Shown here: positions 2,393 through 52,444 of the stretch, in pieces
How positions within the stretch are numbered: position 1 is the stretch's first letter
Layout: every line of letters begins with the position of its first letter
Source: Prevotella sp.
GTDB taxonomy: Bacteria > Bacteroidota > Bacteroidia > Bacteroidales > Bacteroidaceae
Direction: 5' to 3'
DNA length: 64,000 nucleotides
Assembly: GCA_017619755.1 (NCBI GenBank)
Contig: JAFZRU010000065.1
Span: 1-64,000 of the forward strand
Translations under genes and position numbers: made by a program
The notes under the pieces: model-generated
The model's database searches: none
Told to the model about the DNA's origin: nothing
Seen by the model: the letters and a program-made list of their open reading frames with translations, nothing else

Positions 2393-2402
2393 CCTACCCT
2401 CT

Positions 2403-18189: not shown

Positions 18190-18456
18190 TCCATCTGCAC
18201 AGAAGAAAAAAAACCGCTTCGCGATAAAAATAATAAGACGAATAAAAAGGGTCTCTGCAAATGAATTGAAACGCTCACGCTTGATAATAACGCCCAAGGG
18301 CGTGGAAAAAAAAGATATAAAAATTTTTCATAATGAGACAGGAGGACAGTGTTCACGTAGTGCATTACTTTATGTAATGCCTAAAGCCACAGATAGTTAG
18401 ACTATGAACAAAGGCCGCTTCACAATCTTTGTGTGAAGCGGCCTCTTGGCGTTAGG
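18190..18456 (-). ncRNA. Structured repeat, copy B1: branched hairpin element with terminators
   Basis: Read on the minus strand, the element begins with CCTAACGCCAAGAGG (18456-18442) and a 12-bp stem (18413-18424 with 18432-18443, 7-nt loop). Next is a hairpin with loop ATAAA and 7-bp stem GCATTAC/GTAATGC (18362-18380). CTACGTGAACAC and a T-rich run follow, then a hairpin at 18290-18303 (ACGCCC/GGGCGT), and finally ATTTGCAGAGACC with a T-run (18262-18241). The header and the ATAAA hairpin align with the copies at 24148 and 32180. The 3' part, including the T-runs and ATTTGCAGA, aligns with the copy at 32040. It fills most of the 565-bp gap between two minus-strand operons. A function as terminator or as a separate RNA is inference. 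Confidence 0.55.
18412..18444 (-). terminator. Strong hairpin terminator after the TPR-like gene
   Basis: AGGCCGCTTCACA pairs perfectly with TGTGAAGCGGCCT (13 bp, 7-nt loop). On the minus strand it is followed by TTTGTT. It lies about 75 nt beyond the stop of the 18518-19048 gene and forms the first hairpin of the B1 repeat. Confidence 0.65.
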
Positions 18457-18517
18457 AATTATATGAAATAATTCCCTACGGTTATGATGGGCCTCTTGGT
18501 AAAAACATCGATGCCGA

Positions 18518-19048
18518 CTACTTTCCCACGGCCTGTTGCATTCCTTCGAAGAATTTTTCTTGCAGCTGGCGGGCGAGGTGGTTGTTGGGATTGATTTTCA
18601 GGGCTTTCTCATAATTTTGCATCACATCGAGGTAATAGCGCTGGCCATTTTTTGCAGGGTCCTGGACGATGCGCACCATGTAGAGGAAGCCTGTCAAGGT
18701 GCAGATGTCGGAGGGGTCGGCATTCTTCATCTTCTCCATTTGTGCGATGGTTTGCTGCGCTTCCATCATGACGTTCTCCGTCTGCTCGTGGTGCGGGTTC
18801 GTCACAGAGAAGCTGAGGCATTGCAAGGCCATTTGGTATTTCGGCTGAATGCTGTCGGGGAACATCGCGTCGATGCGTTTCAGTTCGGCAATGCAGTTGA
18901 GGCAAGCCTCGGGAGTGGGTTGGGTCAGTTTGCCAAGGGACTTCGCCATGAGTTCGTTCATGGAAGATTCCTGTGCGTTTGCGGTGGCCATGGCCATGCA
19001 GAACAATGCGACGGCCACCAGACGATTTTTAAAAATTCGAGATGTCAT
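18518..19048 (-). CDS. Small periplasmic TPR-like protein coupled to a TonB-dependent receptor
   Basis: The ATG at 19048 is chosen over one at 19075 because it starts a signal peptide (MTSRIFKNRLVAVALFCMAMATANAQ) and because it overlaps the receptor gene's end by 20 bp, which suggests translational coupling. The mature protein, about 150 residues, is helical. It has CLNCIAELKRIDAMFPDSIQPKYQMALQCL and a C-terminal YYLDVMQNYEKALKINPNNHLARQLQEKFF, whose ALKINPNNHLA matches a TPR helix pair. A CxxC (CLNC) sits near residue 48. No enzymatic motif is seen. Its job is probably tied to the receptor encoded upstream, in the periplasm. The exact function is unknown. Confidence 0.78.
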   Translation of the reverse strand: MTSRIFKNRLVAVALFCMAMATANAQESSMNELMAKSLGKLTQPTPEACLNCIAELKRIDAMFPDSIQPKYQMALQCLSFSVTNPHHEQTENVMMEAQQTIAQMEKMKNADPSDICTLTGFLYMVRIVQDPAKNGQRYYLDVMQNYEKALKINPNNHLARQLQEKFFEGMQQAVGK

Positions 19049-21080
19049 AAGCTTTAGTATTTTTAAGTGAAACAAAAATTCCGATGTAGAAAAAGCGGTC
19101 TCTTGATGCCGTGACGGGCCTTCCCTTGTCGTCGTAGCGGAAGACGTTGGTGCGTCCGAGAATGTTGCTCAACGAGGCATAGACGATGACTTTCGGGTGC
19201 AGCAGATGGGTGACGCATACGTCCACGCTGTTGTAAGGAGGGGTGTCGGCTAAGGTGAACCGTCTCCCGGAAGCATACGATTCCGACAGGGAGAAGATGG
19301 TCTTTCCAATGGCGTATTTCGCCGTCACTCTCAGGTTGTGACGTGAGACGAAGTCGGGCGTGCTGGGCCGGTCATAGTCAAGGTAGAGACGCTCGGAGTC
19401 ATTGAAAGAGTAAGAGAGTGTGGTAGAGAGGTTTTGGAAAAGAGAATGGTTTTCCAAGAACAGGTCCACTCCCCTGCTTTTCCCATATCCATGAGGTTGG
19501 TAAAGGCCGTTCTCCCACAGGGGCAGTCGGCGGTATTTCTTCCAGTAAGGCTCTAAACGGAGGAGGGTTTCCGATGTCTTGTATTGGATGGAGAGAATGG
19601 CATGGTCTGCTGTGCCTTGTCCGAGCGTGTGGCCACCCTGCATCAAATACTCGTCGGATGCCACTTGACTGTATCTTCCTGTCACAAAGGAGCATTGGAG
19701 CCGTTTGTTGGGAAGGAAGGTCAGGGTGGCCCTTGGCATCATCAGCCAGTCGCCCCTCATCATTTCCGCCCTGACGGAGAGATGCAGGAACAACCGTGGC
19801 ATAATACGCCACCGTGTGTCGGCGTGAGCGGCGAAGATGTTGTAATGCAACGGGCTTTGGAGGGTGTCGTATCTCAACTTGCTGTATCGGAGATAGTCCT
19901 CCACTCCCGCCGACATTTTTAAGCTTTGAGAACAGCCCTTTCTCATTTCGGCCTTCCAGTGAACCTCGTTCCTGAAATTGCGGTAATGGTCGCCGGCCAC
20001 CCGTGCGCCGTCGATGTCATTAAAGACGGAAGAGTTGGCCACGCCCATAAAAAGCGAGCATCCTTTGGGGAGAGACTTCTTGCACGTGATGTTGGCGTAT
20101 GCGTTATGCTCCTTGAAAGAAAGATTTCTTCCTTCCACTTGCTGGCCCACGGATGTCAAGTCATAGCCGATGTAGGATTTCAGGATGGTCGAAGTGGAAA
20201 ATTCCCTCTTGTACTGCGCCTCGCCGGAGAGTTTGGCGTATGGGCGTACATAGTCATTTCGCTCGGAGAAAAGGCGGTTGTAAAGGTGCATGCTCGTCAG
20301 TGCGGCATTGGCAGAGAGGCTGCCGTTTTCAAAAGCCTTGGTGCCACCGGCGTTCCAGTCCACCAACGACGCACTCACTCCGTATTTGTCGCTCACGGCC
20401 ATGTCGGTGGTCTCCATGGGAAGCACGGATGAAAGCGCCTGTCCATACTCCCCGTCGTAGCCTCCCAAGGAGAAATTGATGCCCTTGAAGAGGAAAGGTG
20501 AGAACCTTCCCCTGACGGCATTGTTCTCTGTGTTGGAAGAATAAGGCATCAGCACGTGCATCCCGTTGACGAAAGTCTGGCATTCCCCGCTATCTCCGCC
20601 ACGGACATACAGTTTCCCGTCCTCCCCCACCTTCTGCGTTCCCGGGAGCGTCTGCAAGGCCGCCACGATGTCACCGCAGGAGTTGCCGGCCATCACCACG
20701 TCGAGGGCATCCATCGTCTGGTAATTCGAGGTCTTTCCGAAACTGAACGTGCTGGCGGTGACCACCACCTCGTCGATGGTCGTGGCTCGCTCGTGCATGC
20801 GGATGGAGAGATGGTTCATATTGCCGACATTAGCCGTCAAGGTTACTTCATCATATCCGATGCAAGTGACCTTGAGGGTGGCCTCACCCTTCTTGTCGGT
20901 GGTGAAGGTGAACCTTCCGAGCGAATCGGCAAGGCACCCGTCGATGGTGCCCATGATGAATACGTTGGCACCCGTGATGGGCTGCCTTCCGTCGGTGACG
21001 GTGCCGGAAACGAGGGTCTGGGCCGCCAGTGTGTTGATGGTCATCCATAAGAGGACGAGGTATGTGAGTCGCTGTTTCAT
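19029..21080 (-). CDS. TonB-dependent outer-membrane receptor with carboxypeptidase-regulatory N-domain
   Basis: A 683-residue protein, shorter than SusC. It has a signal peptide (LAAQ end), a CarboxypepD_reg-like domain at about 22-95 (LVSGTVTDGRQPITGANVFI), TTIDEVVVTAS as the TonB-box region near residue 105, and a plug with SCGDIVAALQTLPGTQKVGEDGKLYVRGG. A roughly 22-strand barrel follows. Receptors of this size usually import metal chelates or small ligands. No SusD partner is nearby. The gene overlaps the next gene by 20 bp. The predicted promoter is so close that the transcript would start at the ATG. The substrate cannot be inferred. Confidence 0.9.
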   Translation of the reverse strand: MKQRLTYLVLLWMTINTLAAQTLVSGTVTDGRQPITGANVFIMGTIDGCLADSLGRFTFTTDKKGEATLKVTCIGYDEVTLTANVGNMNHLSIRMHERATTIDEVVVTASTFSFGKTSNYQTMDALDVVMAGNSCGDIVAALQTLPGTQKVGEDGKLYVRGGDSGECQTFVNGMHVLMPYSSNTENNAVRGRFSPFLFKGINFSLGGYDGEYGQALSSVLPMETTDMAVSDKYGVSASLVDWNAGGTKAFENGSLSANAALTSMHLYNRLFSERNDYVRPYAKLSGEAQYKREFSTSTILKSYIGYDLTSVGQQVEGRNLSFKEHNAYANITCKKSLPKGCSLFMGVANSSVFNDIDGARVAGDHYRNFRNEVHWKAEMRKGCSQSLKMSAGVEDYLRYSKLRYDTLQSPLHYNIFAAHADTRWRIMPRLFLHLSVRAEMMRGDWLMMPRATLTFLPNKRLQCSFVTGRYSQVASDEYLMQGGHTLGQGTADHAILSIQYKTSETLLRLEPYWKKYRRLPLWENGLYQPHGYGKSRGVDLFLENHSLFQNLSTTLSYSFNDSERLYLDYDRPSTPDFVSRHNLRVTAKYAIGKTIFSLSESYASGRRFTLADTPPYNSVDVCVTHLLHPKVIVYASLSNILGRTNVFRYDDKGRPVTASRDRFFYIGIFVSLKNTKAYDISNF

Positions 21081-21084
21081 GCCG

Positions 21085-21116
21085 CAAAGATACGACAGGA
21101 AACCATAGCCTCCAAA
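21085..21116 (-). promoter_or_regulatory. Predicted promoter of the TonB receptor gene, leaderless layout
   Basis: On the minus strand TTTG (21116-21113), a 20-bp spacer and TATCTTTG (21092-21085) match the Bacteroidota consensus. Only 4 bases separate the box from the ATG at 21080, so transcription should start at or next to the first codon. Confidence 0.6.
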
Positions 21117-21123
21117 TTCCCGT

Positions 21124-21478
21124 GACAGACAGCTACATCCTCTGACAGACAGCTAATTCAAAGTGCGAATGACTAAGAAAAATGACGAATGACTAAGCCA
21201 TAAAAGCCTTTTTTCCATCCTCGTTTTCCATGCATGCGCACGCGTTTGTGGGGTTATTTTTTATTTTTTCTTCTTTAGGGGGTGCAGGGGGATTTTCTTC
21301 TTTTTTCTTTTTTAGCCATACAAAGACATTTTTTCAAGTTGTTGAAAATCAATGGATTTCGTATCACAAAATGTGAAAACTTCGCAAGAGGGAGTGAAAA
21401 ATTCGCATTTGGAACAATTTTCTTGTCACATTATACTTGGTACCTATTGCTTGTCACATTTTGCTTGGTATCTATTGA
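21124..21478. repeat. Series of imperfect direct-repeat doublets in the 21081-21640 gap
   Basis: Four successive doublets are visible: GACAGACAGCTA twice (from 21124), CGAATGACTAAG twice (from about 21164), GTGAAAA(C/A)TTCGCA twice with a 21-bp period (from about 21374), and a 28-bp tandem starting TTGTCACATT at 21423 and 21451. The rest of the gap is AT-rich with no convincing gene. The promoter for the next gene is at its right end. Confidence 0.7.
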
Positions 21479-21562
21479 AGCACAGAGTGATAGAAACAAC
21501 ATATTAGTCACCTCAATTAATACACATAAAAAAAACTTTTTGCGTAAAAATTACACAAAAAG

Positions 21563-21594
21563 TTTGGAGGTTTCAAAAATAGTTCGTAATTTTG
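21563..21594 (+). promoter_or_regulatory. Predicted promoter of the ADP-ribosylglycohydrolase fusion gene
   Basis: TTTG (21563-21566), a 20-bp spacer and TAATTTTG (21587-21594) match the Bacteroidota promoter consensus. They are followed by a short leader of roughly 40 nt to the ATG at 21641. Confidence 0.65.
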
Positions 21595-21640
21595 CAAAGG
21601 AAACACGACGAATATAATAAAAGGAGAAAGGAATACGACT

Positions 21641-24136
21641 ATGTTAGGTGCAATCATTGGTGATATTGTTGGGTCAACGAGAGAGTGGCACAACATCAAG
21701 ACAGAAGATTTTGAATTAGTTCCCAAAGGAAGTCGCTTTACAGATGACACCGTGATGACGTTGGCTGTGGCCAAGTGGCTGATGGATGACCCGTTACATG
21801 AAGTAGGCAGTCTTGTCAGGATCATGCAGGACTTGGGACGCAAATACCCTTATGCAGGATATGGCGGTATGTTCCGCAAATGGTTGAAATCCAACAACCC
21901 TCAGCCCTACAACAGTTATGGCAACGGCTCTGCCATGCGAGTAAGTCCTGTGGGATTATATGCCAAAACCCTTCGAGAGGCATTGGAACTGGCACGCATC
22001 ACAGCAATTGTAAGCCACAACCACCCAGAGGGAATCAAGGGTGCGCAAGCCATTGCCGCCTGTGTATTCATGCAGAAGAATGAAAGGTGGAACGCAAAAG
22101 ACCGTATAAAACAATTCATACAGGATGCTTTCGGCTACAAACTTGATATTGACCTGAAGGACATACGCAATCAATACAAGTTTGACTCCAGCTGCCAGGG
22201 CAGTGTACCCATAGCCATCATGGCGTATCTGCAAGGAGGGAATGCGATGGGTGCGTTGCGGTTGGCCATTTCGATGGGAGGAGATTCCGACACCATTGGC
22301 GCCATGACAGCCTCCATAGCGAATGCGGAACCACCATTTCGCTACCCACAGGATAATTATCCGGGAGACTTGATAGAGAGATGTCGGCAACTGCTCCCCC
22401 AGGAGTTGCTTGACATCAACGACCGTTTTGAGGCATTCGTCAGCCGACCACTCTACCAATCTTTTTATATAGGTTCCGGTCAAGTATTCGCCGGAGAGTA
22501 CCCGGGTGACAAGAATGGAGAAAGAGCCAAGGACAAGATACGGCACATGCTTCATTTCGGCGTGCGCCATTTCATCGACCTGACCGAGGAGGGCGAGCTG
22601 CGTCCCTACGCCCATTTGCTGCCGGAAGACGCCACCTACGACCGCTTCCCCATCCGCGACGTGAGCATCCCCAAGAACGTGGACGACGTGCATAGGCTTG
22701 TTGACAGGGTCTTTGAATTGTCGAAACGCGACGACGGTTATGTCTATATCCACTGCTGGGGAGGTGTGGGGCGCACAGGAACCATTGTAGCCTGCCTATT
22801 GGCTGAAAGCATGGAAGAACCAACATGCGAGAATGCCCTAAAGTGTCTGCGCTACCAATTTTCAGAAATGCCCAAGTCCAGTCATCGTGTAACCCCTGAG
22901 ACGAGAGAACAAGAGAGATTTATCAACCAATATGTCGAGAGTATTTTCAGTAGAAGGAAAGAACGCGAAGAGCGAATAAAGGACTGTATCAGAGGTAGTT
23001 TGATGGCGGGCGCTGCCGGCGACGCTCTTGGCTATCCCGTGGAATTCATGAGTCGCTCGGCCATCCTCCATCAATACGGCAAACAGGGGATCACACAGTT
23101 TGAAATAGACAGGCACATCGGCAAAGCACTGGTCAGCGACGACACACAGATGACACTCTTTACTGCCAACGGCATACTGATGGGGGTGACAAGAGGTTGT
23201 ATGCGGGGCATTGGCGGACAGCCTGAGAACTATGTGGACGGAGCCTATTTGGACTGGTATTTTACGCAAACAGGCCGCAAGCGTGAAATCCTCATAGATG
23301 ATTTCCACTTCACCTGGTTGCGCGACCTTCCAGAACTGGCGCATCGCCGTGCGCCCGGGACCACCTGCATGAGTGCTTGTGAAGCCCTTCTCAACCAAAA
23401 TCAACCTCAGAACAACAGCAAAGGTTGTGGTGGCATCATGCGAGTGGCGCCGATGGGGTTGTTTGATGCCGCACATGGTTGCTACCACGCATCCCGTCTC
23501 GCCGAAGCCGGGGCCAAGATAGCGAAGGTCACCCACTTGCATCCCTTGGGATACCTGCCCGCCGCGCTTATGACCTTGCTCCTGTCGCGCATCACCCTAC
23601 TTACCCCAAAAGAAGCCAAGGAGTCCATCAAGGAATTCGTAAACGACGGCATTGATGTCATGATGAAAATGGACGAACCCCAGAAAGACAAGGAGTTTCT
23701 GAAGAACCTCACATTAACGGCTGTTCATCTTGCGGAGAGCGACATCCCCGACGCGGAAGCCATTCGACAGTTGGGGGAAGGCTGGACGGCTGAGGAAGCA
23801 TGGGCCATCTCGCTCTATTGTGCCATCCGCCATATCGACAACATGCAGGAAGCCATCATCGCAGCGGTCAACCATGACGGCGACAGCGATTCCACAGGTT
23901 CCATTACCGGCAATATCATGGGTGCCATTTACGGGTATGAAGCCATCAAGAAAGAGCGGATGTTCTGTCCGAAAGACAGAGAGTTTGAGGACACGATGGA
24001 ATTGGCCAACATCATCCTTGCACTTGCAGATGACTTATATACGGGTTGCATCATCTCTGAATATGACCCAATTGAAACACCTGAAAAGAAACAATGGTAT
24101 GAACGATATTGCCATATGAAACCCGTGGGGATTTAA
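21641..24136 (+). CDS. ADP-ribosylglycohydrolase / protein phosphatase / ADP-ribosylglycohydrolase fusion
   Basis: An 831-residue soluble protein with three modules. Residues 1-260 are an ADP-ribosylglycohydrolase (DraG/ARH-like) domain with GAIIGDIVGS, the metal-binding T34-D-D-T37 and G214-DSDT. Residues about 265-430 are a dual-specificity/tyrosine-type phosphatase with the active-site loop H371-C-W-G-G-V-G-R-T (Cys372, Arg378) and a candidate general acid in IRDVS. Residues about 445-815 are a second ARH domain with AGAAGDALGYPVE, S499-DDT502 and G747-DSDST. All three active sites look intact, so it could remove ADP-ribose (or a related mark) and phosphate from one target, or act on a nucleotide-linked phosphate. 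It is monocistronic with its own promoter and a branched terminator. The substrates are unknown. Confidence 0.9.
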   Translation: MLGAIIGDIVGSTREWHNIKTEDFELVPKGSRFTDDTVMTLAVAKWLMDDPLHEVGSLVRIMQDLGRKYPYAGYGGMFRKWLKSNNPQPYNSYGNGSAMRVSPVGLYAKTLREALELARITAIVSHNHPEGIKGAQAIAACVFMQKNERWNAKDRIKQFIQDAFGYKLDIDLKDIRNQYKFDSSCQGSVPIAIMAYLQGGNAMGALRLAISMGGDSDTIGAMTASIANAEPPFRYPQDNYPGDLIERCRQLLPQELLDINDRFEAFVSRPLYQSFYIGSGQVFAGEYPGDKNGERAKDKIRHMLHFGVRHFIDLTEEGELRPYAHLLPEDATYDRFPIRDVSIPKNVDDVHRLVDRVFELSKRDDGYVYIHCWGGVGRTGTIVACLLAESMEEPTCENALKCLRYQFSEMPKSSHRVTPETREQERFINQYVESIFSRRKEREERIKDCIRGSLMAGAAGDALGYPVEFMSRSAILHQYGKQGITQFEIDRHIGKALVSDDTQMTLFTANGILMGVTRGCMRGIGGQPENYVDGAYLDWYFTQTGRKREILIDDFHFTWLRDLPELAHRRAPGTTCMSACEALLNQNQPQNNSKGCGGIMRVAPMGLFDAAHGCYHASRLAEAGAKIAKVTHLHPLGYLPAALMTLLLSRITLLTPKEAKESIKEFVNDGIDVMMKMDEPQKDKEFLKNLTLTAVHLAESDIPDAEAIRQLGEGWTAEEAWAISLYCAIRHIDNMQEAIIAAVNHDGDSDSTGSITGNIMGAIYGYEAIKKERMFCPKDREFEDTMELANIILALADDLYTGCIISEYDPIETPEKKQWYERYCHMKPVGI

Positions 24137-24147
24137 TCAGAAATCTT

Positions 24148-24250
24148 CCTAACGCCAAGAGGCCGTGTGCCAAACATTCGCCCTTTCGGGCGAGCGGATG
24201 GACATAAAGTCCACCCCTACAGCAACACCGCCCTCTTGGCGTTTTTGGGA
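24148..24250 (+). ncRNA. Structured repeat, copy A1: branched terminator-like element
   Basis: An outer 12-bp stem (24151-24162 with 24232-24243) encloses two hairpins. The first is CGCCC-TTTC-GGGCG (24179-24192); the second is TGGAC-ATAAA-GTCCA (24199-24213). TTTTT follows at 24242-24246. It starts 12 nt after the fusion gene's stop, so it fits a terminator. A copy differing at about three positions lies at 32180-32283, and a divergent copy lies on the other strand at 18.2-18.46 kb. The rest of the gap to 24446 shows only an AT-rich tract and a weak hairpin near 24391-24406. Confidence 0.65.
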
Positions 24251-24446
24251 ATCACATACGGAAAGATGCGGATAATCATATTTTATTTTTTCATTTCTCG
24301 CATCCCACACTCCGCAATTATGAAGGACAGAGTTGCCATAGCCATCCTGCTCGACGGTTAAGGAACGTTAATGTGGTAGGATTTTCACATCCTTTAATTG
24401 TATTTGGATATGAAAACAGGTTTTGAATCGTTTAAAATACGAAGAC

Positions 24447-26339
24447 ATGAGAATTTGGTTGGCCATATTAATCCTTGCCCTATCCGCCATATCTGCGACA
24501 GCACAAACCGTCTCTCGCAGATACGATGGCGTATCGATGGCGGAGGCCCTTGCAGACATTGCCAAATCCTCTGACTACTACAAAATCAATTTCATCTATG
24601 ATGAATTGGATGAATTCCCCGTCAACTGCCACTTTAACCAACGAAATATCATAGATGCCATCATATCGGTCATCGGCCATTATCCGGTCAAGGTGACCAT
24701 TCGAGGGCAGTACATCTTCGTGGAGTGTGTGGAAAAGAGACAGACCAAAGTCAGAGGCAGGGTATTGGGTGCAAGGTCGGCTCCATTGCCCAATGCCAAC
24801 ATCACCATCTTCGATGCCCGCACGGGTGAGAGAATTTGTTTCGGTGTCAGCAACGAGGGTGGCGAGTTTTCCATACCTTGCGATTCCATACGCATCCGTG
24901 TCAAAATCAGCCATGTGGGGTACAAGACGTTCTTCAAGACTTGTCAGGCTGGCAAGTTGGGCGTCATTCAGTTGCACTTCACCAATCAAGAGTTGCAAAA
25001 TGTCAATGTCACCCCCACCACCCATCGGAATCAGTCAATGGAAAAAACAAGTTACAAAAAGAAAGCCGACAAGATAAGGAAACAAATATGGAGCGACACC
25101 GACTCGGCGTTCACACAAACCAGTTTGGACGACAGCCTTCTTCATTATTCCTCCGTGACACTGGCCGAATCCTTCAAAGGTGAATATGATCGTCACCACT
25201 CATGGAATCCATTGCATTTGCTCACCAACCTCTTTTTCAGTGGAACAAATTCCTATCACACCACATCACGCCAAATCGTGCGACGAAGAGTGATGCTGAA
25301 CGATTCCGCCGCCGTGGAAAGATTCTCTATGTTGGACTATCCGAAAGACTTGTTGTTGGAGGGAAACAAGAACCTCAACGTGGTGATGGGGGTAAGAGTC
25401 ATCAGTCCGGAAGGCGACATTTGCGAGATTGACACCGACCCTTTCACACTACCACTTTTGTATGTCGGCGAGCAACGCCCCGACAAGATTTACATCCCTC
25501 AACTTACTGAGGGGTGCATCATTGATTATTTCACATGGTCGGAGCAAAAGACATCAGGTATCCATCCACCTCCCTTCTTCATTCAAGCAACAGACGATTT
25601 CCCTGTTTTACATTCCCAAATCAATGTGACAACAGACAAGAACCTTTCCATCCAATATCGCCATTCAGGCAACACACCCAAATTGTCAGTGAGAGACGAC
25701 AAGAACAACGGTCTATGCCTGTTTAGTCAAGTCAGTGCAACACCTTTCTGCAGCAGCGATACAACAATGGCATACGCTGTTTATGTTCGTGATCCACAGA
25801 TGAACATCAACAGACCTCTAAATGCACTCAAACGACACGTCATAGAAAACCCCACTATTGATGACATCCTGAACACCACATCCCATCTTTACAAGCAAAT
25901 ATGTTCTAAAGTTTCTTCCAAGCAATGGGCTTCAGCCTACTGGAATAAAACAGACACGACAATCATCGGCTTGAAAGTGGACAATCTATGTCAGACATCC
26001 GCCTCGCGCCCCATGCTGGAGCAACATCTGTATGAGATGGTGATGAGCGACCCACCATTTTATGTTTGGCAGACCACACCCATGGGATTCAACAGGGTGT
26101 ACACCGAGAAATTGGCCTATACATTTGACAGAGCCGGCCTTCCTTATCAATTGGCTATGTCCACACGTTCCGACAGGGAAGACATCCTTGAATTGATGGA
26201 TGAAGAGAACATCGTGTGGATGTTGGTCACCGATGATGGCAAATGTTTCATCCCATTCCCAAAAGAGGAAATGTCCGACAATATGATTGGCAGGAAAGCT
26301 GCCACAACGGATTTCAAAAACACATTCATTATACAATAA
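24447..26339 (+). CDS. Secreted protein with STN-like, CarboxypepD_reg-like and DUF3857-like regions
   Basis: The ATG at 24447 starts a signal peptide (MRIWLAILILALSAISATAQ); an ATG at 24423 would add eight residues. Residues about 20-100 resemble an STN/secretin-N domain (YDGVSMAEALADIAKSSDYYKINFIYDELD, VKVTIRGQYIFVE). Residues about 105-185 are a carboxypeptidase-regulatory beta sandwich (RGRVLGARSAPLPNANITIFD). The rest contains a DUF3857-like region (YIPQLTEGCIIDYFTWSEQ, DDFPVLHSQINV) and has no TonB plug or barrel. STN domains normally pass signals from TonB receptors to FecR-type anti-sigma factors. Such a pair is encoded at the end of this operon, so a sensor role is plausible. It is the first of six tightly spaced genes. 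Confidence 0.72.
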   Translation: MRIWLAILILALSAISATAQTVSRRYDGVSMAEALADIAKSSDYYKINFIYDELDEFPVNCHFNQRNIIDAIISVIGHYPVKVTIRGQYIFVECVEKRQTKVRGRVLGARSAPLPNANITIFDARTGERICFGVSNEGGEFSIPCDSIRIRVKISHVGYKTFFKTCQAGKLGVIQLHFTNQELQNVNVTPTTHRNQSMEKTSYKKKADKIRKQIWSDTDSAFTQTSLDDSLLHYSSVTLAESFKGEYDRHHSWNPLHLLTNLFFSGTNSYHTTSRQIVRRRVMLNDSAAVERFSMLDYPKDLLLEGNKNLNVVMGVRVISPEGDICEIDTDPFTLPLLYVGEQRPDKIYIPQLTEGCIIDYFTWSEQKTSGIHPPPFFIQATDDFPVLHSQINVTTDKNLSIQYRHSGNTPKLSVRDDKNNGLCLFSQVSATPFCSSDTTMAYAVYVRDPQMNINRPLNALKRHVIENPTIDDILNTTSHLYKQICSKVSSKQWASAYWNKTDTTIIGLKVDNLCQTSASRPMLEQHLYEMVMSDPPFYVWQTTPMGFNRVYTEKLAYTFDRAGLPYQLAMSTRSDREDILELMDEENIVWMLVTDDGKCFIPFPKEEMSDNMIGRKAATTDFKNTFIIQ

Positions 26340-26343
26340 CGTT

Positions 26344-26949
26344 ATGAATTACAGAAGTATTTTGTTTCTTTCCATCCTGACTTTCGCATTGTCCGTCCAA
26401 GCACAAGAAGGCGACAATACACGTAGCACCAATACTGTCAAACCAAAAACCTCCACTCAAACCTTATCGTTTGATGTGGGGCCGGCATGGATTACATCAA
26501 GGATGTACACCCCTGGAGGAGACTACACATGGACGAACGGCATAGAGATTGGGCTTGATTACTCTTGTGTATTTTCAAAAGGATATGGATTTGGTTTCTC
26601 AATTCTTCACAACTCTACAAGTTATCCTAAAGCTAAAGTCAAGTTGGAGTACGCCGGCCCATCGTTTGTCTATGCTGGTTTTCTCTCAAGCAGATGGCGT
26701 GGAATGGCAGAGATAGGCATGGGGCTTTCCCTTTTCCATGATCAAGGATTTTCAAATGAAACTGGGTTAGGACTCAAGTATTCCACCAGCTTGGAATACT
26801 TGTTGACCAAGGATATTGGAATCAACATGAAACTACAGAGTGTAACCGTCTATTTTGGCGGAAAACAAAAACACTATGGTGGAGATGATGATGAGGTAAA
26901 CGGGGTGGCTCGCGTAGCTTTCCAGTTAGGTGCATGCTTCCATTTCTAA
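26344..26949 (+). CDS. Outer-membrane beta-barrel protein, unknown function
   Basis: The start at 26344 is chosen because it opens a signal peptide (MNYRSILFLSILTFALSVQAQ) four bases after the previous stop. The 201-residue product then alternates aromatic and small residues in short strands (YTWTNGIEIGLDYSCVF, GYGFGFSILHNST, GLGLKYSTSLEYLL, INMKLQSVTVYFGG) and ends ARVAFQLGACFHF. The terminal Phe is typical of outer-membrane barrels. It is likely an 8-strand barrel. No enzymatic motif is seen. It is the second gene in the sigma-factor operon and probably a surface or envelope component regulated with it. Confidence 0.72.
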   Translation: MNYRSILFLSILTFALSVQAQEGDNTRSTNTVKPKTSTQTLSFDVGPAWITSRMYTPGGDYTWTNGIEIGLDYSCVFSKGYGFGFSILHNSTSYPKAKVKLEYAGPSFVYAGFLSSRWRGMAEIGMGLSLFHDQGFSNETGLGLKYSTSLEYLLTKDIGINMKLQSVTVYFGGKQKHYGGDDDEVNGVARVAFQLGACFHF

Positions 26950-26989
26950 TCATTTTCAGTTTTACACTAAGACGGAAATTCAGACTATT

Positions 26990-28039
26990 ATGAGTATATT
27001 CAGTTTAAAAAGGATAAATGGGGGCATACTTGCCATATATGTATGTTTAAGTTTGATGTCTTGCAGAAATGTGTCGGACCATTATATTCTGCCAAATTTC
27101 CTTGAGAGAGTTTTAAATTACGAAACAAACAGTAATATTGATGATTTTAGCATTAACATAATTACCCATAGGCCATCATCATTCTCTTTTTTTTGGGTGG
27201 ATTTATCATTTGAAAGTGATAGTTGCTTTGAAATTAACGAGCATGACATATGTGCGACAATCGGAAAGGATACGCTAAAAATTCATTCATGGGCACTCTT
27301 CTTTAACAAAGATAACACTTATAATGGGAAGTTGTTAAGAACGCCATCATTTGGCCGATATGATAGTTGGGATTCGATATATTTCCCTATGGTACCACAA
27401 TTGAAAGTGCCTATGGGAAAAAACACCTTGCGTTTTGGTACTCATCAATATCATCCATTTTCATTACCCCTTAGGATATCTGTCATTTTAAGTGGAGTGC
27501 AAACGACTCCTGTTGTCTTGGAGTTGAAACCAGAAAAGGCCATCATGTACAGTCAAGATATAAAACTTGTGAAATGGGATGAGACCAAAATAATTTGTGA
27601 AAATGACAGTGTAAATGTATATTTATCAAGACAACCATTGAAAAAAGATTCTTGCGAATTTCTTTGCTTGTTGTATTTTGATATGTTAGACAATGTAATT
27701 CTAAATAAAGGTAAGACAGTGGAAAATAAGAAGGAGTTGCCCATATCTTATATAGACTTTAATTTAGATGACATTGATTTGCGTCTCTCTGACACCTCCT
27801 ATTGTGTTGAGGTCTTGGATGATATTCCATTTGATTTTTTCAATCCGTTTATCAGTAAAAAAGAAAGCCTGTCACAGGCTTGCATCCCTTTCAAAATAAG
27901 GCGTAAGGACGGAAGACCTGTTGACTACATCCCGGACCTAATCCTCCCTCCAGGCAATCTCTTACTCAAGGATGGGAAGCCGCTCTTGGTTGATACTATT
28001 GTATTTAAAGGCACCCTATCTCCTATTATCACCCCATAA
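26990..28039 (+). CDS. Hypothetical lipoprotein, AT-rich
   Basis: The ATG at 26990 opens a lipoprotein signal (MSIFSLKRINGGILAIYVC) with the lipobox LMSC (Cys25); a longer frame from 26930 overlaps the upstream gene and lacks a signal. The 349-residue protein is beta-rich with no motif I recognise; it ends PPGNLLLKDGKPLLVDTIVFKG. Its base use is clearly more AT-rich than the flanking envelope genes (many TTT, AAA and ATA codons), which suggests a separate origin within the operon. Spacing is 40 bp to the gene before and 21 bp to the gene after. The function is unknown. Confidence 0.7.
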   Translation: MSIFSLKRINGGILAIYVCLSLMSCRNVSDHYILPNFLERVLNYETNSNIDDFSINIITHRPSSFSFFWVDLSFESDSCFEINEHDICATIGKDTLKIHSWALFFNKDNTYNGKLLRTPSFGRYDSWDSIYFPMVPQLKVPMGKNTLRFGTHQYHPFSLPLRISVILSGVQTTPVVLELKPEKAIMYSQDIKLVKWDETKIICENDSVNVYLSRQPLKKDSCEFLCLLYFDMLDNVILNKGKTVENKKELPISYIDFNLDDIDLRLSDTSYCVEVLDDIPFDFFNPFISKKESLSQACIPFKIRRKDGRPVDYIPDLILPPGNLLLKDGKPLLVDTIVFKGTLSPIITP

Positions 28040-28060
28040 TAACAGAAGTGAATAATAAAA

Positions 28061-28720
28061 ATGAATCTTATGAAGCCTTTCATCTTTTTCATTCTGGCGG
28101 TTTTCTCACTCCAAACGGAAGCACAATGCAGATATTGCAACAGTTATGAGGACTACAAGACAGACAACTGGAAGGAACTGCCTTCCATTGACATCAAACA
28201 TTATTCCAATTCGAAACAACTATGGACAAATAAACATGAGTATCAATTAAAAACAGACCTCAAGTCAACCAAAAAGATGTTGAGCAAGGAGGCTCTTATC
28301 ATTCAGAAAGGAGACACGATGTATGTCAACCTACGCTATTTGAGATGTGAAAAGGAGAATTTCGGCAAAGGTCTTGCCTATGGCATCCCCCTCATAGGCA
28401 AAAAGATTCTCTTCATCAGCAAACGTGTGGACAAAAAGTCTTCCAACAATCAATTGTTCTCATATCTTTTGTTTGGGGTGATGGGGAGTCTGATATCCTC
28501 ATCGTTGAATATCAAAAACAATGCCTGCTACATACTGGACACAGGCCGCAATGGAAAATACACCGACGTACTGATCATAGATGACGAGGTGATGAAAAAA
28601 TTGCTTGTTAACGACAAGGAATTGCTTGACAAATATTTCATGATTGCAGACCAGAACGAGCGCGAGACACCCTCCAACATCCTGCCCCTGCTGAAGGAGA
28701 AAGGACTCATCGAACAATAA
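28061..28720 (+). CDS. Hypothetical secreted protein
   Basis: A 219-residue protein with a signal peptide (MNLMKPFIFFILAVFSLQTEA) and then CRYCNSYEDYKTDNWKELP. A hydrophobic segment at about 130-150 (LFSYLLFGVMGSLISSSLNI) could be membrane-associated or buried. The region MLSKEALIIQKGDTMYVNLRYLRCEKENFGKGLAYG resembles small Bacteroidales secreted proteins of unknown function. No catalytic residues are recognisable. It lies 21 bp after the AT-rich lipoprotein and 3 bp before the sigma factor gene, so it is certainly co-transcribed with the sigma factor. Confidence 0.65.
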   Translation: MNLMKPFIFFILAVFSLQTEAQCRYCNSYEDYKTDNWKELPSIDIKHYSNSKQLWTNKHEYQLKTDLKSTKKMLSKEALIIQKGDTMYVNLRYLRCEKENFGKGLAYGIPLIGKKILFISKRVDKKSSNNQLFSYLLFGVMGSLISSSLNIKNNACYILDTGRNGKYTDVLIIDDEVMKKLLVNDKELLDKYFMIADQNERETPSNILPLLKEKGLIEQ

Positions 28721-28723
28721 CCT

Positions 28724-29206
28724 ATGGACGACAAGGAGCTTGCTTCTCTCTACAAGCGGCACTATGCCGAAATGCTGAACCACGCAAGGACGTTACTCTA
28801 CGACGAAGAGGAGAGCCGTGACGTCGTAGCCGAAGTATTTGCAGCCATAGCCCATGAAGACACCGTCATCCATACTGCGACGGAAAGGACGTTCCTGCTG
28901 AGATGTGTGAAAAACCGCTGCATCAACATCATCAACAGGATGAATACGCGGCAACGCGTGTCACGATTGTTCACCATGCGCACCTTGGAAGAAGGGGATG
29001 AGGACGAAGGAGAGAATGCAGAAAGGCTGAAACTGTTCATGGAACAATGGTTGAGCAAACGCGCCATCGACATCCTCCACATGAGATTCGTCGAAGGAAT
29101 GAAATACCAGGAGATAGCGGAAAGCCTGCACATCAGCGAAGCTGCCGTTTATAAATACCTCTCACAGTCACTGACTACGATACGCCAACATTTCAAAGCA
29201 AAATAA
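28724..29206 (+). CDS. ECF-type RNA polymerase sigma factor
   Basis: A 160-residue protein. Residues 1-85 are sigma region 2 (LYKRHYAEMLNHARTLLYDEEESRDVVAEVFAAI, then FLLRCVKNRCINIINR). Residues 100-155 are region 4 with a helix-turn-helix (ILHMRFVEGMKYQEIAESLHISEAAVYKYLSQSL). Size and layout fit extracytoplasmic-function sigma factors. An anti-sigma gene follows after 10 bp. In Bacteroidales such pairs usually precede a SusC/D pair and respond to its ligand. Here they close an operon of secreted proteins instead, so the regulated genes are probably upstream or elsewhere. Confidence 0.93.
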   Translation: MDDKELASLYKRHYAEMLNHARTLLYDEEESRDVVAEVFAAIAHEDTVIHTATERTFLLRCVKNRCINIINRMNTRQRVSRLFTMRTLEEGDEDEGENAERLKLFMEQWLSKRAIDILHMRFVEGMKYQEIAESLHISEAAVYKYLSQSLTTIRQHFKAK

Positions 29207-29216
29207 CCCCACGAAC

Positions 29217-29807
29217 ATGAATGAAGACAAAATGAAATCCTTGCTCGACATAATCGACCATGTGGAACAATTTTCAGACGCCGAGATGGAGCGTGTCCTG
29301 CGCGACAAGGAAACCTTGGCTTTCTACGAGACCATCGTCATGGTGAGACAGGCCCTACAATCCAAGGAAGTTCGAGGGAAGAACCTTTTGCTGCACCAAG
29401 GCTTTTTTTGGAAAGCGGCTTCCGTCATCATCATCCTGTTTGTCGTGGGAGCACTTGGCTATGCTGCATTCCACTTCATCGGTGGTCAGCCACGCGAAGA
29501 GCCGACCATCACCTCCACGTCCGTTTCCAACAGTTATTCAGAGGAAGGGTTGGCAGACAAGGAAATGGAAAAAGCTCCCATGGCAAAAACCGTTTTGTTT
29601 GAGAACAAGACGTTGCGTGAGGTGCTGGACAATGTATCCAAAGCCTACAAAGTGAAAGTCAAATACGAAAAGGTGGAAATTGCCAACCTGCGCCTATATT
29701 TCAATTGGGACACTTCTGTGGATATCCATGAGGTGTTGAACATACTCAACAGTTTCGATCATTTCCATCTGGAACTCGAAGGTAACACCATCGTCGTAAG
29801 CAAGTAA
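29217..29807 (+). CDS. FecR/DUF4974-type anti-sigma factor
   Basis: A 196-residue single-pass membrane protein. Residues 1-60 are cytoplasmic and should hold the sigma factor. A transmembrane segment spans about 65-87 (KAASVIIILFVVGALGYAAFHF). The periplasmic part ends in a DUF4974/STN-like domain (VLFENKTLREVLDNVSKAYKVKVKYE, LNSFDHFHLELEGNTIVVSK). The central FecR domain of full-length anti-sigma factors (about 320 residues) is missing, so this is a short version. It presumably senses a periplasmic partner, perhaps the STN protein at 24447-26339, and releases the sigma factor encoded just upstream. Confidence 0.85.
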   Translation: MNEDKMKSLLDIIDHVEQFSDAEMERVLRDKETLAFYETIVMVRQALQSKEVRGKNLLLHQGFFWKAASVIIILFVVGALGYAAFHFIGGQPREEPTITSTSVSNSYSEEGLADKEMEKAPMAKTVLFENKTLREVLDNVSKAYKVKVKYEKVEIANLRLYFNWDTSVDIHEVLNILNSFDHFHLELEGNTIVVSK

Positions 29808-29887
29808 CATAATCATTCTGGAAATATGTAAATAAATTGTACAGTTTTCAAGTTTAAAAATGGAACACTTAATGTATGTAAGAATTT

Positions 29888-30166
29888 ATGAAATCTAATA
29901 GGAATCCTACGGAAGAAGAGAAACTAATCATAAGTTTCTTGGCTACTAAAGCCAATTATTCACATAATAATTGGGAGAAAGACCTAAAAGTTGCCGAGAT
30001 GAATGATGGCGGTATGGGTAATCTGCTCCTGATGCCAGTGGGTCAAGTCAATACAAAACGACTATTTAAAGCACTAATCAGTTAAGGCCGACCTTTGAAT
30101 GATGACAGAGTTGTTACTATTGGGTTAAATAAATGGAAAAAAAAACATAAAATGCAATTTGAATGA
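29888..30166 (+). pseudogene. Probable DUF6984-like gene broken by an in-frame stop
   Basis: The first 65 codons (29888-30085) read RNPTEEEKLIISFLATKA and then AEMNDGGMGNLLL, which resembles DUF6984 proteins of about 100 residues. The frame stops with TAA after FKALIS. Downstream in the same frame, GRPLNDDRVVTIGLNKWKKKH looks like the missing C-terminal half up to a TGA at 30166. The gene therefore seems truncated, though a short functional product of 65 residues is possible. The region is AT-rich and lies at the edge of the ATPase/TOPRIM-like module. The family comparison is from memory. Confidence 0.4.
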
Positions 30167-30177
30167 AGAGAATTTAC

Positions 30178-30185
30178 TAATTTTG
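30178..30185 (+). promoter_or_regulatory. Candidate -7 box of the ATPase/TOPRIM-like module
   Basis: TAATTTTG matches TAnnTTTG, 32 bp before the ATG at 30217. TTTG at 30158-30161 is only 16 bp away, shorter than usual, so the promoter is uncertain. Confidence 0.4.
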
Positions 30186-30216
30186 CACTGACAATGTTGT
30201 TTGAAATGTAAGAAGT

Positions 30217-31281
30217 ATGATTGACAAGATAGACATAAAGAATTTCAAGTCGATAGCTCAAGCAAGTATGACTCTGGGTCGCGTTAATTTGTTTATTGGC
30301 GCAAACGGCTCCGGTAAGTCAAATATTCTTGAGGCAGTGGGTATGGCTGCCGCTATACGGAATAAGGAGGTGGCACTTGACAGCCTTGTGCAACGTGGCG
30401 TGAGAATCGCACGGCCCGAGCTAATGACAAACTCGTTTTTTGGTCAGTCTTCGTCAAAGCTCATCCGCATCAGCTTCTACGAAGGTGAAACGATGGCAAG
30501 CTATGATATAGAACGTCTGAAGAGTTCGGATATTTATGCTCCATGGAAGGTGAGTGAAATGTCGTTTCATCAAGAGGAAGAGAATTTGAAGAACCTTCAG
30601 GAAATGATCTTCCGCTATGCTATTTATTCTCCAGACATTGATGCATTGCGAGGACTGACGTCAGGAGCAACCCTCTATCCGTTAGGCCTGCATGGAGAAG
30701 GACTCGATGTGTTGCTTGGTCAGTTGCCCAAAGAGGAATTGGGAATTATCAAGGATACGGTGAAACGATTTGTCTCATGGGTGGATGATATGACCTTTGA
30801 CTTTGAGGGCATGTATAAGTTCCAAGGATATAAGTTGGGACGTAGCAAGTCAGACTTGTATTTCCGTGACTCATTCATGCAAAAGAAGAATAACCTTTTC
30901 TCTGCGGAGAATGCCAATGAGGGTGTGCTGGTATTGCTGTTCTATTTGGCTCTGCTCGTGAGCAAGAGCACACCAAAGTTCTTCGCCATTGATAATATAG
31001 ACACGGCACTGAATCCGCGTCTTTGCAGGTATCTGATGAAAGTGATAGGGAAGTTGGCGGCACAATACGACAAACAGTTGCTGATAACCACTCACAACCC
31101 TGCCATTCTGGATGGTATCACCCTGAATGGAGACGGAACTCATCTTTTCATTGTAGAGCGTAGCGATGAGGGTGACACCCGTATCAACGAGTTGAAGATA
31201 AAGCCCGCTACGGAACGAAGGATGAAATTGTCTGAAATGTGGATGAACGGATTGATAGGTGGTATCCCTGAGGAGTTCTAA
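30217..31281 (+). CDS. AAA (SMC/OLD-like) ATPase of a putative two-gene defence module
   Basis: A 354-residue protein starting MIDKIDIKNFKSI, the standard N-terminus of RecF/OLD/AbiL-type ATPases. Walker A is G28-ANGSGKS35. A signature region (NANEGVLVLLFYLALLVSK), a Walker-B-like FFAIDNIDTALNP and the switch LLITTHNPAIL follow. The Walker B differs from the usual DEP, having DNID. It lacks a TOPRIM domain, but the next gene, 2 bp downstream, appears to encode one. This split layout resembles AbiL (AbiLi/AbiLii) abortive-infection systems and split OLD nucleases. The defence role is inferred from architecture and from the AT-rich setting beside a tRNA gene. Confidence 0.82.
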   Translation: MIDKIDIKNFKSIAQASMTLGRVNLFIGANGSGKSNILEAVGMAAAIRNKEVALDSLVQRGVRIARPELMTNSFFGQSSSKLIRISFYEGETMASYDIERLKSSDIYAPWKVSEMSFHQEEENLKNLQEMIFRYAIYSPDIDALRGLTSGATLYPLGLHGEGLDVLLGQLPKEELGIIKDTVKRFVSWVDDMTFDFEGMYKFQGYKLGRSKSDLYFRDSFMQKKNNLFSAENANEGVLVLLFYLALLVSKSTPKFFAIDNIDTALNPRLCRYLMKVIGKLAAQYDKQLLITTHNPAILDGITLNGDGTHLFIVERSDEGDTRINELKIKPATERRMKLSEMWMNGLIGGIPEEF

Positions 31282-31283
31282 AT

Positions 31284-31997
31284 ATGAGGGTAGGAGTCAT
31301 AGCAGAGGGTTTTGCTGATGTCAATGTGATCAAGGCGATTCTGAAAAAGATAGCAGGAATCGACGGTAGTGAGGTGAGATTGCTGCGACCACAGGAGCAA
31401 CTGGACGAGACGGATTTGAACGAACTGAACTTCAGCAGCTGGCAATTGGTGTTTGAAAGTTGCAAGGACGAGGAAAAGCTTAGTGCCTTTTTTGAAGACA
31501 TTGAAGGCGAAGCCCTTTTGATAGTTCATGTTGACACTGCGGAGAGAGGTTTAAAGGGGTTTGACATACCAGAACCGCAAAGAACTGGTTCGACTGATTA
31601 TGCTGCTTATTCGGAACAAGTGAGGGTGAAGGTGATAGAAAAGCTCAAGTTTTTGCTTCCAGAGCGTTTCCATAAGAATATTGCCTATGCCATTGCCATA
31701 GAGGAGACGGATGCCTGGCTGATACCACTCTTTGAGAACAACGCGAAGGACACGGCCTCACATACGAAAGCTAAAGAGACGCTTTCTAAACTAATAGGCA
31801 AGGACAAGAAGCGCCAGAAGGAATATACTGATACGTCGAAGAAGTCCCTGAACTACAAGAACCTTGGGAAACTGTTTGCGAAGAATCTGTCACTATGCAG
31901 GACACGAAACAAAAGTTTAGACCTGTTTTGTGCGGAAATAGAGGAGAGGAAACTCCACCATCTTGACTATCCTTGTTCTCGTATGAAAAGAGTATGA
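31284..31997 (+). CDS. DUF4276/RloB-like (TOPRIM-like) protein, partner of the ATPase
   Basis: A 237-residue protein. The N-terminus VGVIAEGFADVNVIKAILK has the conserved Glu of TOPRIM-like DUF4276 proteins. LLIVHVDTAERG supplies the acidic strand-end motif, and AIAIEETDAWLIPLFE matches the EExDAWL signature seen near the C-terminal half of that family. Lys-rich residues 160-190 may bind nucleic acid. It is encoded 2 bp after the ATPase and is clearly co-expressed with it. Together they could form a nucleic-acid-targeting defence complex. Nuclease activity is not proven by sequence; some relatives may act on RNA or tRNA. Confidence 0.7.
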   Translation: MRVGVIAEGFADVNVIKAILKKIAGIDGSEVRLLRPQEQLDETDLNELNFSSWQLVFESCKDEEKLSAFFEDIEGEALLIVHVDTAERGLKGFDIPEPQRTGSTDYAAYSEQVRVKVIEKLKFLLPERFHKNIAYAIAIEETDAWLIPLFENNAKDTASHTKAKETLSKLIGKDKKRQKEYTDTSKKSLNYKNLGKLFAKNLSLCRTRNKSLDLFCAEIEERKLHHLDYPCSRMKRV

Positions 31998-32039
31998 TGT
32001 GTAACATACTTGAAAACAAGAAGATAAAAAATATAAAGC

Positions 32040-32185
32040 AATAAAAAGGTCTTCTGCAAATAATCTTAACCGCAGCCGCTTGATAAAAACACTTGACGGT
32101 GTCGCAAAAAAAATAAAAACATTCTTGGAACATGAGCCAAGAGGTCCGTTGCAACTGATAGGGACAGACTTTATGTCGTCCTAAT
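32040..32185 (-). ncRNA. Structured repeat, copy B2
   Basis: On the minus strand it opens with a bulged hairpin GGAC-A-GAC-TTTAT-GTC-GTCC (plus-strand 32062-32081, loop ATAAA when read minus). It continues with CCTATCAGTTGCAAC, CCTCTTGGC and T-runs, then the hairpin ACAC...GTGT (32089-32102), and ends with ATTTGCAGAAGACC and TTTTT (32061-32040). The 3' half aligns with copy B1 at 18241-18310. The stems differ in sequence but keep pairing. It abuts copy A2, which lies in the opposite orientation. Confidence 0.5.
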
Positions 32186-32283
32186 ACCAAGAGGCCGTGT
32201 GCCAAACATTCGCCCTTTCGGGCGAACGGATGGACATAAAGTCCACCCCTACAGCAACACCGCCCTCTTGGCGTTTTTGGGAT
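32180..32283 (+). ncRNA. Structured repeat, copy A2: branched terminator-like element
   Basis: Nearly identical over about 103 bp to copy A1 at 24148-24250; about three substitutions were seen. One of them (A for G) makes the first hairpin longer, TTCGCCC/GGGCGAA. Another pair of changes shortens the outer stem to CCAAGAGG/CCTCTTGG (32187-32194 with 32264-32271). The TTTTT tail is kept. It lies about 180 nt after the ATPase/TOPRIM-like module and 90 nt from the tRNA 3' end. The remaining part of the 31998-32618 gap holds copy B2, the tRNA and two promoters. Confidence 0.65.
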
Positions 32284-52368: not shown

Positions 52369-52381
52369 TTGATAGGAGAAT

Positions 52382-52435: not shown

Positions 52436-52444
52436 CCAAAAACG

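What the first reader, a model, noticed from the sequence alone, without database searches (positions are those of the whole stretch)
18190..32283. Family of branched, terminator-like RNA repeats with covarying hairpins
Four copies can be aligned by eye: 18190-18456 (-), 24148-24250 (+), 32040-32185 (-) and 32180-32283 (+). Shared parts are a CCAAGAGG header, a variable first hairpin, a second hairpin whose loop is always ATAAA, then CTAC..AACAC..CCTC(T/C)TG and a T-run. The second hairpin's stem is GCATTAC/GTAATGC in one copy, TGGAC/GTCCA in two, and GGAC-GAC/GTC-GTCC in the fourth, so sequence changes but pairing stays. Hairpin 1 also changes completely while pairing. The two minus-strand copies share a further hairpin (ACGCCC/GGGCGT versus ACAC/GTGT) and the tail ATTTGCAGA. 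The copies at 24.1 and 32.2 kb are almost identical, which suggests recent copying. All lie directly downstream of operons.
Basis: seen in the sequence. Interest (0 to 1): 0.78.

Follow-up and report, generated by a model that had tools for sequence, protein, structure and literature searches.

The report
REPIN DNA repeats, not RNA family
The matching "RNA hairpins" are copies of a short mobile DNA repeat (REP/REPIN palindromes) scattered over this bacterium's genome, where close relatives of the repeat lie beside the transposase-like genes thought to spread them; some copies sit inside a second, larger inverted-repeat element.

Summary
The repeats are real, but they are a genome-wide DNA repeat, not four copies of a branched RNA. 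The 24.1 kb sequence has 41 further matches in the same genome (a floor). In the window REPs face each other in three pairs, as REPINs: 18357-18479, 24125-24220 and 32158-32252. All four Y1-transposase-like genes found in the genome have such hairpins nearby. The two most RAYT-like (RAYT: REP-associated tyrosine transposase) each carry their own stem class. Stems covary and the loop is nearly fixed, as expected for ssDNA read by a RAYT. Orientation shows no terminator bias (5 against 5); there is no Rfam match. Further, 16 of 19 own sites with a conserved terminal inverted repeat (ATGATTATCCGCAT...) carry these REPs. The same inverted repeat bounds multi-hairpin elements in four other genomes of the genus, some with 8-9 nt target duplications. 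Verdict: REPINs, a known kind, in a nested variant I did not find described. RAYT mobilisation is inferred.

The parts
18357..18381 (+). REP of pair A: GTAG + TGCATTAC-TTTAT-GTAATGCC hairpin
18382..18454 (-). Spacer of pair A, with a strong hairpin (GCCGCTTCACA..TGTGAAGCGGC) and the internal CCAAGAGG
18455..18479 (-). Second, inverted REP of pair A: GTAG + GGAATTAT-TTCAT-ATAATTCC; stem close to that of the REPs around RAYT-like gene P0002 (C3)
24125..24149 (+). Left REP of pair B: GTGG head, bulged hairpin GGGATTT/AAATCTTCC (by eye)
24150..24195 (+). Spacer of pair B: AACGCCAAGAGG arm and second hairpin TTCGCCC..GGGCGA
24196..24220 (-). Right REP of pair B: GTAGGGGTGGAC-TTTAT-GTCCATCC, the class most often listed in the genome
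24221..24255 (+). Outer arm AGCAACACCGCCCTCTTGGCGTTTTTGGGAATCAC; a CCTCTTGG/CCTCATGG arm is in 21 of 30 aligned copies
24256..24279 (-). Terminal inverted repeat end ATGATTATCCGCATCTTTCCGTAT of the enclosing element
32137..32157 (+). Left outer arm CCAAGAGGTCCGTTGCAACTG, similar to the reverse complement of the right outer arm
   Evidence: by reading
32158..32181 (+). Left REP of pair CD (head degenerated to ATAG): GGACAGAC-TTTAT-GTCGTCC
32182..32227 (+). Spacer of pair CD, CCAAGAGG arm and GCCC hairpin
32228..32252 (-). Right REP of pair CD, same as that of pair B
18225..18320 (-).
32040..32115 (-). Second window copy of the same AT-rich module (approximate limits)

Best explanation
These are REPINs: two inverted REP palindromes with GTAG-type heads outside and a structured spacer between. 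The most likely mechanism is that a RAYT (a Y1, HUH-type single-strand DNA transposase) reads the GTAG strand as a folded ssDNA hairpin, holding the GTAG head, the TTTAT loop and the irregular stem. It then cuts next to it and pastes copies elsewhere, in trans. Different stem classes belong to different RAYTs, so stems differ between classes while pairing, head and loop stay. Shown here: repeat, head, hairpin, covariation, head-to-head arrangement in the window, and RAYT-like genes each beside its own stem class (P0001 with GGGGCGGAC stems, P0002 with GGAATTAC stems). Inferred: cutting and copying by these proteins. In some copies the REPIN lies within a second element with terminal inverted repeats, which may itself have carried it. 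Few copies between divergent genes is most simply tolerance of insertion away from promoters; any terminator effect would be a by-product.
For: 42 matches in the genome, itself included. Pattern GTAGG-N-CTTTATG: 42 and 129 rows against 8 and 1 for the reversed control (a minus-strand site can give up to three rows). 4 of 4 Y1_Tnp genes found in the genome have such hairpins nearby, several copies on both sides for two of them. P0001 and P0002, 66-67% identical, match NCBIfam REP_Tyr_transpos at 67.9 and 67.4 bits; a profile of them with 8 relatives has E. coli TnpA-REP (4er8) as best PDB hit, E = 1.3e-8. Of the best 80 of 570 loci encoding P0001 relatives, 64 have GT[AG]G hairpins in up to 1.5 kb of flank, against 0.7 in Markov controls. 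Covariation; its 11 rows were found letter for letter in the DNA. Copies lie between convergent genes 11 times, divergent 3 (24 judged of 30). Published TnpA-REP work (PMC8266576, passages seen) reports strand-specific ssDNA hairpin recognition through GTAG, loop and bulge.
Against: P0001 and P0002 score under the curated NCBIfam cut-off of 80 bits. A left partner was found by strict pattern in only 5 of 30 aligned copies, about 11 of 30 by eye, so many copies are single REPs. Mechanical ORFs of 70 aa or more overlap the core in 14 of 29 copies, so 'intergenic' is not established. The strict hairpin rule finds REPs in only 1 of the 4 own loci (bulged stems), 13 of 29 relatives' loci and 1 of 11 other Y1 loci. 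Genome G036 has repeated REP-like hairpins but no Y1_Tnp hit (85% complete); the Y1 genes of G049 that could be oriented carry IS200-type, not RAYT, motifs (2 of 4). The commonest class (GGGGTGGAC) sits beside only P0003 (HLN for HUH), not beside an intact RAYT, though the class around P0001 is about 90% identical to it over 59 nt. Movement was not observed.
Confidence: 0.82

Rival explanations
1. A structured RNA or orientation-specific transcription terminator family.
For: Strong predicted folds, a closing CGCCAAGAGG/CCTCTTGGCG stem followed by a short T-run at 24.1 and 32.2 kb, few copies between divergent genes, covarying stems.
Against: No orientation bias (5 against 5; crude gene calls). 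CCTCTTGG/CCTCATGG arm in 21 and internal AAGAGGCC in 8 of 30 copies, so the whole branched fold is not the conserved unit. The GTAG head and near-fixed loop match a DNA recognition signal. No Rfam family; terminator scan below chance.
Confidence: 0.1
2. The dispersing unit is a TIR element (MITE) moved by an unseen DDE-type transposase, and the REPs are cargo or decoration.
For: TIR pattern 21 hits in the own genome, 0 in controls; 16 of 19 TIR sites carry REPs, one of them with a degenerate head (by reading). Same TIR in G034, G036, G049 and G059 (7, 5, 31, 42 hits; controls 0). 8-9 nt direct repeats at the borders of 5 of 15 TIR pairs with at most 3 mismatches (over all 33 pairs 6 share at least 6 nt, null mean 0.49, maximum 4 in 2000 shuffles). 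One own copy (C8, 122 nt) has both TIRs and an 8-nt repeat but no REP.
Against: Most aligned REP copies lack a TIR end (13 of 30 loci have one at either end with up to 7 mismatches; 9 of 30 copies by strict rule). No autonomous partner seen. The other own copy with both TIRs (C42) and 9 of the other 13 better pairs show no target repeat of 6 nt or more. The 261-nt own element is in none of the 99 other genomes searched.
Confidence: 0.3
3. Chance resemblance of AT-rich intergenic hairpins.
For: Short two-copy repeats are often chance matches; some parts (the tails) fold no better than shuffles.
Against: E-values down to 4.5e-45 between loci and 42 matches; pattern controls low (8 and 1 against 42 and 129; 0 against 21).
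Confidence: 0.01

Closest known systems
GTAG-tagged REPs and head-to-head REP dimers (Di Nocera 2013, PMC3733652; passages and section 16 seen)
   Same: GTAG/GTGG head, imperfect hairpin, complementary stem changes between families, head-to-head dimers (heterodimers included) with structured spacers, near RAYT genes; that paper also reports REP units joined to unrelated stem-loops as long inverted repeats around two RAYT genes in Pseudomonas
   Different: In the passages I saw, GTAG repeats are not placed in Bacteroidetes (only CGTC repeats are); here the two REPs of a pair mostly share the TTTAT-like loop but not the stem, and some lie in a TIR element whose ends recur in several genomes of one genus
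REPINs (Bertels and Rainey 2011, PMC3116915; passages seen)
   Same: REP doublets as inverted pairs with compensatory changes, tied to RAYT genes; single REPs explained there as decayed REPINs
   Different: A minority of the 30 aligned copies keep both REPs; conserved arms extend about 60 nt beyond the head in some
TnpA-REP subclass 2.4 = RAYT group 4 (Quentin 2018, PMC6006769; section 12 and passages seen)
   Same: NHIH, WQ and a Y-x-x-x-N-P motif in P0001/P0002; a double-foot REP about 860 nt from P0001; reported in Bacteroidetes
   Different: YIYMNP instead of YIxNNP; scores below the NCBIfam cut-off
Subclass 1.2 TnpA (same paper, passages)
   Same: P0004 and relatives carry the Y-x-x-x-Q-x-x-H-H signature
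   Different: The paper's table gives it no REPs and its text generally no typical terminal structures; here 22 of 27 testable loci have inverted arms, many visibly hairpin-rich (controls 1 of 60 and 0 of 60)

Membership tests
REP / REPIN | Short palindrome repeated many times in one genome | tested here: met
   42 matches, itself included
REP / REPIN | Mostly intergenic | tested here: inconclusive
   A mechanical ORF of 70 aa or more overlaps the core in 14 of 29 copies; whether these ORFs are genes was not tested
REP / REPIN | GT[AG]G at the foot of the hairpin | tested here: met
   Of six window REPs four have GTAG, one GTGG, one ATAG; genome-wide pattern
REP / REPIN | Inverted doublets with heads outside | tested here: inconclusive
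   All three in the window; 5 of 30 genome copies by strict pattern, about 11 by eye
REP / REPIN | REPs flanking a RAYT gene in the same genome | tested here: met
   P0001 (four, both sides, plus a double-foot one further out) and P0002 (five, both sides)
REP / REPIN | Mobilised by the RAYT | not testable with these tools
   needs biochemistry or strain comparison
RAYT group 4 / subclass 2.4 | NH[IFV]H and WQ motifs | tested here: met
RAYT group 4 / subclass 2.4 | YIxNNP catalytic motif | tested here: not met
   P0001 and P0002 read YIYMNP, so not filed as a plain member
RAYT (NCBIfam NF047646) | Score above curated cut-off of 80 bits | tested here: not met
   67.9 and 67.4 bits
Rfam RNA family | Match at gathering score | tested here: not met
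   Only a tRNA found in the window
MITE | Terminal inverted repeats at both ends | tested here: inconclusive
   Both ends in 2 own elements (C8, C42); otherwise one end only
MITE | Target-site duplication | tested here: inconclusive
   8-9 nt in 5 of 15 better TIR pairs, own C8 among them, C42 not

The most novel reading that the evidence does not exclude
Two single-strand-DNA transposase systems are nested in these genomes. A TIR-bounded, multi-hairpin element (often 234-277 nt), with ends found in five genomes of the genus, is the gene-less form of an element that carries a subclass-1.2 Y1 transposase at its centre. In this genome its centre has been taken over by REPINs of group-4-like RAYTs, so REPINs travel inside a second element. 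Subclass 1.2 TnpA would then have a mobile substrate after all.
Probability: 0.22. Interest if true: 0.58.

Novelty: new variant of a known kind. Interest (0 to 1): 0.38.

Why it matters
It removes a false lead (a new RNA family) and puts the repeats in a system with a testable protein partner. Two RAYT-like proteins 66-67% identical in one genome, each beside its own REP stem class with the same loop, are a ready case for asking how RAYT and REP specificity co-evolve. The REP-inside-TIR arrangement, and the inverted arms around subclass-1.2-like TnpA genes, suggest a substrate for a transposase group that the one paper I found describing it (PMC6006769) left without one.

Tried and rejected
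Rfam at gathering score: nothing but a tRNA. Plasmid and phage collections with the 24.1 kb element: no match. Full 261-nt own element in 100 related genomes, own included: own only. TIR near the four own Y1 genes and five relatives' loci: no score above the shuffle maximum; a by-eye TIR upstream of P0002 was therefore dropped. A 1.66 kb stretch between two TIR-like sites in G049 holds an AAA+-like ORF (named by eye), not a recognisable transposase; treated as coincidence. The REP-less C8 copy is not a clean empty site: its gap also removes about 16 nt outside the GTAG head, so insertion and deletion cannot be told apart (by reading). A phmmer search of P0001 alone against PDB found nothing. 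No structure prediction was run: the tool's list of admitted sequences did not plainly cover loci taken from the genome search. Papers: no held paper has REPIN, RAYT and Prevotella together. In the listings of searches (titles and starts of abstracts) I saw no description of these elements; a 2015 Porphyromonas MITE paper and a Prevotella intermedia genome paper listed there were not opened. A 2025 REP survey (PMC12306157, two passages) does not hold the word Prevotella in its main text. The library lacks most subscription journals.
Full report
What is in the window. Parsing them on both strands changes the picture. Each ATAAA hairpin, read on the opposite strand, is GTAG (once GTGG, once ATAG, over the six REPs) followed by an imperfect hairpin, with a TTTAT-like loop in five of the six. 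These units come in inverted pairs with the heads outside: 18357-18381(+) with 18455-18479(-); 24125-24149(+) with 24196-24220(-); 32158-32181(+) with 32228-32252(-). The shared ATTTGCAGA tail is a different repeat.

It is a genome-wide DNA repeat. The 24.1 kb sequence has 42 matches, itself included, in its own 3.7 Mb, 67-contig genome (40 of 100 candidates scored). Aligning 30 loci shows one universal core, CATTCGCCC..GGGCGAGCGGATGGACATAAAGTCCACCCCTAC with few changes, while arms, partner REP and outer ends are each kept in only some copies. The pattern GTAGG-N-CTTTATG gives 42 forward and 129 reverse rows against 8 and 1 for the reversed pattern. The looser GTAG pattern is weaker: 43 and 145 against 45 and 27.

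RAYT neighbourhood. Pfam Y1_Tnp finds four genes. P0001 (C63) has four REPs of the GGGGCGGAC-TTTAT-GTCCGTCC kind within about 310 nt, on both sides, and a double-foot palindrome about 860 nt out. P0002 (C3) has five GGAATTAC-TTTAT-GTAATTCC REPs on both sides, close to the left REP at 18455-18479. P0003 (C18) has a pair about 400 nt away, and P0004 (C43) a degenerate pair downstream. P0001 and P0002 are RAYT-like (67.9 and 67.4 bits, below the 80-bit cut-off), with NHIH, WQ and YIYMNP motifs. A ten-sequence profile has E. coli TnpA-REP (4er8) as best solved structure, E = 1.3e-8. P0003 has HLN for HUH. P0004 is an IS200-type protein above its cut-off (64.8 against 55 bits) with the YIINQKEHH signature of subclass 1.2. 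Around the best 80 of 570 P0001-related loci, 64 have GT[AG]G hairpins against 0.7 in Markov controls. The same strict rule gives 13 of 29 for relatives' loci, 1 of 4 for the own loci because of bulged stems, and 1 of 11 for Y1 loci of ten related genomes.

Covariation. On 11 hairpins from this genome and from G036, G049 and G059, 90.9% of cells pair; 6 of 8 pairs change on both sides; the covariation score is 0.534 against 0.186 in shuffles, 0 of 500. The rows were picked by eye as REP-like, so the paired percentage is biased upward; all were later found in the DNA. Pairing conservation cannot separate RNA from ssDNA. The head and loop favour the latter, since published TnpA-REP proteins read GTAG, loop and bulge on one strand (PMC8266576, passages).

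Terminator reading. Of 24 copies with both neighbours called (simple ORF calls), 11 lie between convergent genes, 3 between divergent ones, and 5 and 5 in the two orientations relative to same-direction genes (four of the 24 are neighbouring copies at two places). In 14 of 29 copies a mechanical ORF also overlaps the core; it was set aside. That suggests avoidance of promoters without orientation preference. The terminator scan found 11 sites against 14.9 in shuffles and none at 24.1 or 32.2 kb on the + strand, but it only scores simple hairpins.

An enclosing element. 13 of the 30 loci have, at one or both ends, ATGATTATCCGCATCTTTCCGCAAGTG or its complement with up to 7 of 27 mismatches. The shorter 24-nt pattern has 21 hits in the genome and 0 in controls, at 19 sites, 16 of them with REPs (by reading). 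Two own elements have both ends: C42 (175 nt, one REP, no target repeat) and C8 (122 nt, no REP, 8-nt repeat ATTGAAAA). In 100 genomes the pattern recurs in G034 (7), G036 (5), G049 (31) and G059 (42), with single hits in G042 and G076, controls 0. Of 60 stretches fetched from five of these genomes, 16 had both ends, 107-398 nt apart; eight hairpin-rich ones are 234-277 nt (hairpins by eye). Those of G049 and G036 have GTAG..CTA[CT] at the centre. Direct repeats of 8-9 nt flank 5 of 15 TIR pairs with at most 3 mismatches. Over all 33 pairs, spurious ones included, 6 share at least 6 nt against a null mean of 0.49 and maximum of 4. That points to classical cut-and-paste movement, not to a Y1 enzyme.

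Subclass 1.2 genes. In G059 a Y1 gene (L201; one stop listed) lies between two halves of the hairpin array seen in gene-less elements of that genome. Of 32 loci tried (30 P0004 relatives, own included, plus L199 and L201), 27 could be oriented by motif and 5 could not; L199 and L281 are the same gene. 22 of the 27 rows, hence 21 of 26 distinct loci, have inverted arms scoring above every one of 100 shuffles. The same test gives 1 of 60 at random places in the window and 0 of 60 in the loci's own flanks. PMC6006769 gives subclass 1.2 no REPs and generally no typical terminal structures (passages seen). Own P0004 has such arms but no ATGATTATCCGCAT end within 3 mismatches, so its link to the window's elements is only suggestive, and 8-9 nt duplications do not fit Y1 movement.

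Conclusion. The finding is a set of REPINs from RAYT-linked REP families: a known kind. The variant features are pairs made of two different stem classes, mostly with a common loop, and the placement of some inside a TIR element whose ends recur across the genus. RAYT movement, TIR movement and any effect on transcripts were not observed.

Noticed in passing
window 18225-18320 (-) and about 32040-32115 (-): AT-rich repeat of about 115 nt (TCTGCAAATGATCTGAAACGCTCACGCTTGATAATAACGGCAAGCCGTGG + A-run), 13 matches in the genome, with and without neighbouring REPs; function unknown.
   Followed up: partly
window about 18168-18203; L010, L023, L025, L030, L047, L193: Another interspersed repeat (CCCAGGGCGTTGCCCTGGGCTGGTATCTCGTTGGCCTTTCAGGCCGTCTTTGCACAAAAACC); similar hairpins also occur in the TIR elements of G049 and G059.
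   Followed up: partly
L038:1476-2543 (-): 355-aa Y1-like protein P0003 with HLN in place of HUH; long frames (370-487 aa) with weak similarity to P0001 in several related genomes.
   Followed up: no
L279-L308, L199, L201: Subclass-1.2-like TnpA genes across the order are flanked by long inverted arms, many hairpin-rich (22 of 27 rows; controls).
   Followed up: partly
L176 / L181 (C8:47319-47440): TIR element of 122 nt without REPs and with an 8-nt flanking repeat.
   Followed up: partly
window 2312-2400, 52380-52440, 60125-60187, 62421-62490: Short tandem repeats of 9-10 nt units (CTAGAGAAT, AAGGACTTT, ATAGGAGATT).
   Followed up: no
window 37384-38131: Repeats spaced in multiples of 69 nt within an ORF, probably leucine-rich-repeat-like (name by eye).
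   Followed up: no
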